From Lachnospiraceae bacterium (GTDB lineage: Bacteria; Bacillota; Clostridia; Lachnospirales; Lachnospiraceae), in assembly GCA_021200475.1 (NCBI GenBank), contig JAJQGP010000059.1, positions 1-33,434 of the forward strand: a stretch of DNA of 33,434 bases, written 5' to 3'. Of this stretch, positions 20,430-23,295 are shown one piece after another. Position numbers and translations under genes: made by a program. The notes under the pieces were generated by a model. It was not told the DNA's origin, searched no databases, and saw only the letters and a program-made list of their open reading frames with translations. Within the stretch, counting starts at the first letter, position 1; each line of letters opens with the position of its first letter.

Positions 20430-20901
20430 ATGATAAAATTCGAGTAACAGTTCAGAACAGCATCGAAATGAAAAGACAGACTGTGCAGGTTTACCTGCTA
20501 AAGGCTGTATTTTCATTTCGGGATGGGCGGAACGCCCATCAAGCCACAGACATATGACGCGTTAGCGGCATATAGCCTGCATCGCAGGCGGTCTGCGGCC
20601 TGCTGTTCTGAATAGTTACAAATTCGAATGGGATGAAAACAAAAACCAGATTAATATAAAAAAACATGGAATATCCTTTGAAAATGCGCAGGAAATTTTT
20701 TATGATGACGCGGCGATTTTGTTCGATGATCCAGAGCATTCCAAAGATGAGGAACGCTTCCTGATTATTGGGAATGATGAAAGGGAGAAGACTTGTATCG
20801 TCAGTCATTGTTATCGGAAAGAAGATGTGATACGGATTATTTCTGCAAGAAAAGCAACTGCAAAAGAGAAACAGATATATTTAAAATGGAATGCGAGGTA
20901 G
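20430..20901 (+). pseudogene. brnT: brnT toxin gene interrupted by a MITE
   Basis: The gene starts ATG ATA AAA TTC GAG (MIKFE) at 20430 and hits TAA at once because an element entered after codon 5. The rest resumes at 20620 as KFEWDENKNQINIKKHGISF and runs to TAG at 20899-20901. Removing the element and one 8-bp duplication restores MIKFEWDENKNQ, the typical BrnT start. BrnT is a ribonuclease toxin of the RelE-like fold. The downstream part has no ATG, GTG or TTG in frame between the last stop at 20563 and the conserved region, so the full toxin is not made. The antitoxin gene brnA after it is intact. Confidence 0.9.
20444..20619. mobile_element. 176-bp MITE with 17-bp terminal inverted repeats and 8-bp target duplication
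   Basis: The left end GTAACAGTTCAGAACAG (20444-20460) and the right end CTGTTCTGAATAGTTAC (20603-20619) are inverted repeats matching 15 of 17. AAATTCGA flanks the element on both sides (20436-20443 and 20620-20627). The interior has no ORF and contains hairpins CGAAATGAAAA (20464) / TTTTCATTTCG (20510), GCAGG/CCTGC (20485/20494), GATGGGCG/CGCCCATC (20522/20533) and GCCTGC/GCAGGC (20575/20584). GTAA ends and an 8-bp duplication fit mobilisation by an IS66-like transposase, but this is inferred. Confidence 0.9.
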
Positions 20902-20905
20902 TCAT

Positions 20906-21121
20906 ATGAAAGACGAATATGATATTGAAAAATTAAATCCACGGAAGAATCCTTACTCGAATCGTCTAAAACGGCAGATTACGATTAATATAGACGAAAG
21001 TACGATAAAATATTTTAAAGGACAGTCAGAAACATCCGGTATCCCCTATCAGACACTGATTAATCTGTACCTTTCGGATTGTGCGGCGAATGGCCGGAAG
21101 CTGAAGCTTTCATGGGAATAG
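20906..21121 (+). CDS. brnA: BrnA-type CopG-like antitoxin
   Basis: This 71-aa protein, MKDEYDIEKLNPRKNPYSNR onward, has the PRKNPY...LKRQITINID ribbon, the helix stretch ESTIKYFKGQSETSGIPYQT and the closing LINLYLSDC typical of BrnA antitoxins of the ribbon-helix-helix type. BrnA binds BrnT and represses its own promoter. GAGGTAG precedes the ATG at 20906; an in-frame ATG five codons earlier would overlap the brnT stop. Its partner toxin is disrupted, so it is now an orphan that may still act as a repressor. rarA begins 30 bp after its stop. Confidence 0.88.
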   Translation: MKDEYDIEKLNPRKNPYSNRLKRQITINIDESTIKYFKGQSETSGIPYQTLINLYLSDCAANGRKLKLSWE

Positions 21122-22465: not shown

Positions 22466-22493
22466 AGAAGTCTGAATCGTATCTGAAAATAAA

Positions 22494-22534
22494 AAGCACT
22501 GGATACACTCAATGATAAGTGATCTCCAGTGCTT
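22494..22534. terminator. Bidirectional terminator between rarA and the transporter gene
   Basis: AAGCACTGGA (22494-22503) pairs with TCCAGTGCTT (22525-22534). An A run lies before the stem and CTTCTTTG after it, so it can work in both directions between the convergent genes. Confidence 0.8.
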
Positions 22535-22614
22535 CTTTGATTATCAGAGCAACGCAAGGGGTTCTTATGGCGAAAGCCGCCCCGGCCCGTGCGGGCACGG
22601 CCGCGTAAAAACGT

Positions 22615-23295
22615 TTATTCGCTTTGACAGACCTTCTGATGTTTTTTCCATGTACAGACGCAAAGGACTGCGAACAGTGCGGCCGCGCATCCGGCAACGG
22701 CCCAGGAAATCCACCCGGCCGTCAGAAGACAGACGCCGTCCTTCATGGTGGTAAATCCGAAGACTGCGAAGATCACGAACGCCAGCTTATCCAGAAAACC
22801 GGCCGGCATTTTGCTCTCGATCAGGTGACCGACCAGCATACCGATCAGATCCGCGGCAAACAGGCCGATGGAACAGGCCAGCCAGACCAGGATGGCATTG
22901 TTTACTCCCTCGTTTGCAGCGAAGGTGATAGCGGTCAGCTGTGTCTTATCGCCCAGCTCTGCGATAAAAAAGGTGCCGAAGACCGTCAGGATGGGTGGAA
23001 ACTTTGATTCTTTGACCTGTTCTTCTTCGCCGTCTTCGACCTTGCATAAGGTGGTCCATGCAAAATAGAAGAAAGCGAGGGCAGCGATGATTTTGATCAG
23101 CCAGGTCGGAATAAAACGGCTGATCAGAGCGCCTAATCCCACCGCGATTGCATTTAATGCCAGAATTGAGGCTCCGGAGCCAATGATGATGTCCCGGAGC
23201 TTATACCGGGAGGTCATGGCGATCATCAGAAGCTGTGACTTATCGCCCATTTCGGCGATAAACATGGTAAAAAGAACTTGCAGAAACAGCAGCAT
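22615..23295 (-). CDS. Gdt1/TMEM165 family (UPF0016) transporter, probable Mn2+ exporter
   Basis: This is a 226-aa membrane protein with about six helices in two repeated halves. Each half carries the family signature: EMGDKSQ (Glu15, Asp18) and ELGDKTQ (Glu113, Asp116). Bacterial members such as MneA export manganese. An acidic loop (KVEDGEEEQVKESK) links the halves, and the C-terminus is a further hydrophobic segment. AAAAGGAGG before ATG at 23295 sets the start; an upstream in-frame ATG has no such site. A yybP-ykoY riboswitch directly upstream strongly supports a manganese role. It converges with rarA. Confidence 0.92.
   Translation of the reverse strand: MLLFLQVLFTMFIAEMGDKSQLLMIAMTSRYKLRDIIIGSGASILALNAIAVGLGALISRFIPTWLIKIIAALAFFYFAWTTLCKVEDGEEEQVKESKFPPILTVFGTFFIAELGDKTQLTAITFAANEGVNNAILVWLACSIGLFAADLIGMLVGHLIESKMPAGFLDKLAFVIFAVFGFTTMKDGVCLLTAGWISWAVAGCAAALFAVLCVCTWKKHQKVCQSE

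What the first reader, a model, noticed from the sequence alone, without database searches (positions are those of the whole stretch)
20430..20901. MITE inserted after codon 5 of brnT, with a reconstructable pre-insertion gene
The 176-bp element has 17-bp inverted ends (15 of 17 matching) and AAATTCGA on both sides. Removing it restores a normal BrnT start MIKFEWDEN. The toxin is lost and the antitoxin kept, the expected safe direction for decay of a toxin-antitoxin operon. The element is almost entirely hairpins.
Basis: seen in the sequence. Interest (0 to 1): 0.7.

Follow-up and report, generated by a model that had tools for sequence, protein, structure and literature searches.

The report
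Hairpin mini-transposon broke brnT toxin gene
A 176-base transposon fragment, one of many copies in this gut bacterium's genus, jumped into the start of a toxin gene and broke it while leaving the matching antitoxin gene whole; the event is well supported and fairly ordinary, though the enzyme that moves the element was not found.

Summary
A 176-bp element (20444-20619) with 17-bp inverted ends (15/17) lies between two copies of AAATTCGA, inside codon 5 of brnT, and gives an in-frame stop. Two close relatives carry the natural gene with one AAATTCGA and no element. The end motif occurs 247 times in the genome, its control 3 times. Of 34 complete exact-ended copies in three genomes, 17 have exact 8-bp flanking duplications; 0 of 1122 mismatched controls do. 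Ends and duplication length resemble published ISBst12-type IS66 ends, but no transposase with these ends was found, and six genomes rich in the element show no IS66 transposase. At this locus, among 20 fetched loci, nine keep brnT-brnA remnants: two intact, four with a broken toxin and readable antitoxin, three with both damaged, none the reverse. The element is one form of a modular hairpin family (38-328 bp). Longer forms carry a separate ~50-nt hairpin module that also sits outside the family; how it spreads is unknown and is the more novel lead.

The parts
20444..20619 (+). 176-bp MITE-like element
   Evidence: identical to four other copies in G000 and G018
20444..20462 (+). left inverted end, 19 bp
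   Evidence: pairs with 20601-20619
20601..20619 (-). right inverted end, 19 bp
20436..20443 (.). left copy of the 8-bp target duplication AAATTCGA
   Evidence: single copy in G018 and G019
20620..20627 (.). right copy of the 8-bp target duplication AAATTCGA
20464..20520 (+). hairpin arm A of the element
20522..20540 (+). hairpin arm B of the element
20543..20599 (+). branched hairpin arm C of the element
20430..20443 (+). 5' piece of brnT, start codon to the insertion
20628..20901 (+). 3' piece of brnT; its first in-frame ATG/GTG/TTG start is at 20719 and leaves 60 aa, PF04365 profile positions 32-77 of 77
20906..21121 (+). brnA antitoxin gene, 71 aa, intact; PF14384
20389..20417 (+). promoter-like site before brnT (11 of 12), left upstream of the element
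   Evidence: consensus match only, and the number of such sites in the region is not above the shuffles (5 against mean 2.7, sd 1.8)
22486..22493 (.). empty target (AAAATAAA) of a second copy that G018 carries just after rarA and the window lacks

Best explanation
A non-autonomous, hairpin-rich mini-transposon of a family confined, as far as searched, to one Lachnospiraceae genus jumped into codon 5 of brnT. A transposase acting in trans on its 17-19 bp ends made a staggered cut that left an 8-bp duplication. The element brings a stop codon, so BrnT ends after five residues; brnA keeps its own start and probably stays on the same transcript behind a 176-nt hairpin leader. The insertion came after the split from the G018 lineage. 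It was tolerated because losing the toxin while keeping the antitoxin is harmless. Shown: the element, its duplication, the other copies, the natural empty sites, the stop. Inferred: the type of transposase (ISBst12-like, IS66 family), expression of brnA, and the absence of selection.
For: Exact 8-bp duplication here and in 17 of 34 complete exact-ended copies, 0 of 1122 controls. Natural empty site in G018 and G019 with intact 95-aa BrnT. Reciprocal case: G018 has a copy after rarA flanked by AAAATAAA, and the window has one AAAATAAA there and no copy. The brnT copy is identical to four others and 14 copies of this form average 98% column identity, so movement is recent. End motif 247 times against 3. 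Published ISBst12-group ends GTAACTGCTCAGCA with an 8-bp repeat (ISDge4, PMC12898284, passages seen) resemble GTAAC..TTCAGAA here. At this locus no relative has a broken antitoxin with a whole toxin (0 of 9).
Against: No element with these ends and a transposase was found. PF03050 is absent from six genomes with many ends (G000, G011, G018-G021). 10 of 34 complete copies have fewer than 7 of 8 flanking bases alike. Canonical IS66 ends are given as GTAAGCG (PMC11946415, passages), which these are not. Expression of brnA was not tested.
Confidence: 0.86

Rival explanations
1. The element is moved by a transposase family other than IS66 that also leaves 8-bp duplications (such as ISL3, IS256 or IS1595; these names are recalled, except that an ISL3 partner for an 8-bp-duplicating MITE was seen in PMC11448079).
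For: No IS66 transposase in the genomes richest in the element. A 187-nt Microcystis MITE with 8-nt repeats was assigned to ISL3 by its shared ends (passages).
Against: The end motif resembles published ISBst12-group ends. ISL3 ends in the Microcystis case start GGCTCTTCG, unlike these. Other transposase families were not searched here.
Confidence: 0.25
2. The hairpin element was kept because it regulates brnA, as a leader that stabilises or terminates the transcript, so the insertion is an adaptation and not simple decay.
For: Strong fold; it lies between the likely promoter and brnA; copies of the form keep pairing, with three pairs changed on both sides.
Against: The pairing test is weak: 10 of 500 shuffles reach 3 such pairs. 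Identical copies sit in unrelated places. Other relatives lost brnT without this element. No expression data.
Confidence: 0.1
3. The two AAATTCGA copies and the element are an assembly join of two repeat-bearing stretches.
For: The genome is a draft of 180 contigs and several contigs begin inside copies of the element.
Against: Gene order deacetylase-brnT-brnA-rarA is the same on both sides in G018 and G019, and the 8-bp duplication would not arise from a wrong join.
Confidence: 0.03

Closest known systems
MITEs in bacteria, for example the 187-nt Microcystis MITE (PMC11448079, passages seen)
   Same: Short, no transposase gene, inverted ends, 8-nt direct repeats, stem-loop fold, many near-identical copies, breaks genes in some strains and is absent in others.
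   Different: There a full ISL3 element shares the ends. Here no partner was found, and the interior is a set of exchangeable hairpin arms.
ISBst12 group of the IS66 family, ISDge4 (PMC12898284, passages seen)
   Same: Ends GTAACTGCTCAGCA / GTGACTACTCAGCA against GTAAC..TTCAGAA; 8-bp direct repeat.
   Different: ISDge4 has a 449-aa transposase. The element here has none, and the 30 IS66 loci fetched from the genus do not carry these ends.
BrnT/BrnA type II toxin-antitoxin pair (Pfam PF04365, PF14384)
   Same: Toxin gene followed by antitoxin gene; both families matched over their cut-offs.
   Different: In the window the toxin gene is interrupted and the antitoxin stands alone.
REP elements and their tyrosine transposases (PMC3733652, passages seen), for the ~50-nt hairpin module
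   Same: Short palindromic repeat in many places, also without an obvious transposase in some genomes.
   Different: No Y1_Tnp match in the window's genome. The module has its own constant sequence and often sits at the tip of other hairpins.

Membership tests
MITE (miniature inverted-repeat transposable element) | Short, no transposase gene | tested here: met
   176 bp; longest ORF wholly inside it found is 30 aa
MITE (miniature inverted-repeat transposable element) | Terminal inverted repeats shared by many copies | tested here: met
   247 end matches against 3 control; 34 complete exact-ended copies in three genomes
MITE (miniature inverted-repeat transposable element) | Target duplication of fixed length | tested here: met
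   8 bp exact in 17 of 34, no other length from 4 to 11 exact in any; 0 of 1122 controls
MITE (miniature inverted-repeat transposable element) | Full-length partner with the same ends | tested here: inconclusive
   none found in draft genomes; contigs break inside copies, so a multi-copy partner could be missing
IS66 family, ISBst12 group | Ends GTAA... of the ISBst12 kind | tested here: met
   GTAAC..TTCAGAA against published GTAACTGCTCAGCA, compared by eye
IS66 family, ISBst12 group | 8-bp direct repeat | tested here: met
   published for IS66
IS66 family, ISBst12 group | IS66 transposase gene between these ends | tested here: not met
   PF03050 0 in G000; 21 of 47 genus genomes match PF03050, and 0 of 30 fetched loci have paired ends of this kind. 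So it is not filed as a member; it works like one.
BrnT/BrnA toxin-antitoxin | Toxin of PF04365 next to antitoxin of PF14384 | tested here: met
   window pieces; whole BrnT of G018 and G019, 77 of 77 profile positions
BrnT/BrnA toxin-antitoxin | Toxin is an active ribonuclease neutralised by the antitoxin | not testable with these tools
   no assay

The most novel reading that the evidence does not exclude
The genus hosts a separate mobile hairpin module of about 50 nt that inserts into the tips of other hairpins, including three different arms of this MITE family and unrelated inverted repeats, so that repeats grow by nesting; recombination between modules then trims the MITEs to short forms. 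The mover is unknown and not of the Y1 type in this genome.
Probability: 0.3. Interest if true: 0.7.

Novelty: new member of a known kind. Interest (0 to 1): 0.42.

Why it matters
It gives a clean, dated example of a toxin-antitoxin locus decaying toxin first, with natural before and after states in close relatives. It also uncovers a large, recently active MITE family with no visible transposase, built from exchangeable hairpin arms; the shared hairpin module raises a testable question about how hairpins insert into hairpins.

Tried and rejected
Looked for an autonomous partner: PF03050 in the genome (0) and genus (21 of 47 genomes); ends in the 30 fetched IS66 loci, no pair (single hits at 4 mismatches in L084, L085, L108); exact ends in G000, G010, G014, G018, where two distant pairs in G018 (about 4.7 and 6.9 kb) were read by eye as ordinary genes between separate elements, not scanned against a family library; phages and plasmids, no match; viral contigs, 0 for a 19-mer and 11 single ends for a looser pattern, none paired, taken as chance without an estimate. 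Other transposase families were not searched.

Rfam gave nothing above gathering scores. A stop-free-frame test for whether other copies lie in genes was useless, with no control. Y1_Tnp as mover of the hairpin module: 0 in the genome.

Papers: searched; no paper on this family was seen in the listings, and most papers of subscription journals are not held.

Full report
Observation. The element spans 20444-20619 (176 bp). Its ends match at 15 of 17 and it is flanked on both sides by AAATTCGA. It sits after the second base of codon 5 of brnT and yields a stop as the sixth codon. After it, the frame of brnT offers its first ATG, GTG or TTG start at 20719, leaving 60 aa that cover PF04365 positions 32-77 of 77. 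brnA (20906-21121) is whole.

Empty site. In the related genomes G018 and G019 the same gene order (deacetylase, brnT, brnA, rarA) holds with one AAATTCGA and no element, and BrnT is an intact 95-aa protein matching all 77 positions of PF04365. Conversely, G018 carries a copy just after rarA between two AAAATAAA, and the window has one AAAATAAA there (22486-22493) and no copy; in G019 the sequence after rarA differs and says nothing. So the two insertions happened after these lineages split.

Copies. A BLAST search of the genome gave 56 matches. The 17-base end with up to 3 mismatches occurs 247 times against 3 for the reversed control. With up to 2 mismatches, 18 of 47 genomes of the genus have 10 or more matches and the controls have at most 2 each. 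An 18-base end occurs in 0 of 395 genomes of other genera in an even sample of the family, and in 1 of the 2 genus members in that sample. Among all pairs of exact ends within 500 bp in G000, G014 and G018 (34 pairs; G010 had none), 17 have an exact 8-bp duplication, 24 have 7 or 8 of 8, 10 have fewer; no other length from 4 to 11 was exact in any; 0 of 1122 mismatched pairs were exact. The brnT copy equals four others, one in G000 and three in G018. One G000 and one G018 copy share the duplication AAATGAGG and may be one old insertion; their flanks were not compared.

Structure. The element folds into a closed stem with three arms. On 14 copies (10 distinct), 99.2% of cells pair, against 31-43% when slid; three pairs change on both sides, a number that 10 of 500 shuffles also reach. 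So the fold is real, but selection on it is only weakly supported.

Modular interior. Paired copies run from 38 to 328 bp (the 38-bp and 328-bp ones lack a clear duplication). Longer forms carry a hairpin module at the tips of arms A, B or C. In G000 the module's pattern occurs 29 times, control 0; by my reading 21 of 29 lie in this MITE family and 8 elsewhere. It occurs in 31 of 47 genomes of the genus, including some with hardly any MITE ends, such as G002 with 14 modules and 2 ends. Of 64 distinct contexts in the fetched loci, a script put 30 in the three arms and 34 elsewhere, at least 5 of which I read as MITE-derived; several of the rest lie between inverted flanks. The brnT copy has no such module.

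Mover. The ends and the 8-bp repeat resemble the ISBst12 group of IS66 (ISDge4; passages), more than canonical IS66 GTAAGCG (passages). But PF03050 is absent from G000, G011 and G018-G021, all rich in ends; G014 has one weak fragment, G007 one and G009 two matches. No fetched IS66 locus carries paired ends of this kind. Several contigs of G000 begin inside copies, so a multi-copy partner could be missing from the draft. I hold IS66 as the most likely type, not as shown.

Decay of the pair. One search matched 45 of 47 genus genomes, and the 20 best loci, one per genome, were examined. Nine hold brnT-brnA remnants: G018 and G019 intact; G000, G011, G014 and G017 with a broken or missing toxin and a readable antitoxin (G011 lies at a contig edge; the G017 antitoxin is 67 aa with a GTG start); G009, G020 and G021 with no toxin match and a partial antitoxin. 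None has a whole toxin with a broken antitoxin. The other matching genomes, including some with partial matches elsewhere, were not examined. The named records L121 and L122 look like G020 and G021 and are not counted again.

Host. The nearest named records by RarA are uncultured Lachnospiraceae genomes (99% over the best segment).

Noticed in passing
L008 1414-1690, L019 1318-1645, L204, L212, L216, L219, L224 and others: A ~50-nt hairpin module with constant ends and changing, still paired stems sits at tips of MITE arms and of unrelated inverted repeats; 29 pattern matches in G000, 31 of 47 genus genomes.
   Followed up: partly
L034 1501-1615: A copy of the family lies between two genes that I read by eye as groES and groEL, inside a likely operon; its right end is decayed.
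   Followed up: no
L041 near 1501; L060 near 1501: Single ends of about 20 bp without a partner end, apparently remnants.
   Followed up: no
window 22500-22620: A hairpin after rarA is followed by a GC-rich palindromic stretch; a similar stretch follows rarA in L121. Possibly another repeat family.
   Followed up: no
L284 300-380: In G018 an end of the family lies directly before an open frame whose first ATG falls within the element-derived sequence.
   Followed up: no
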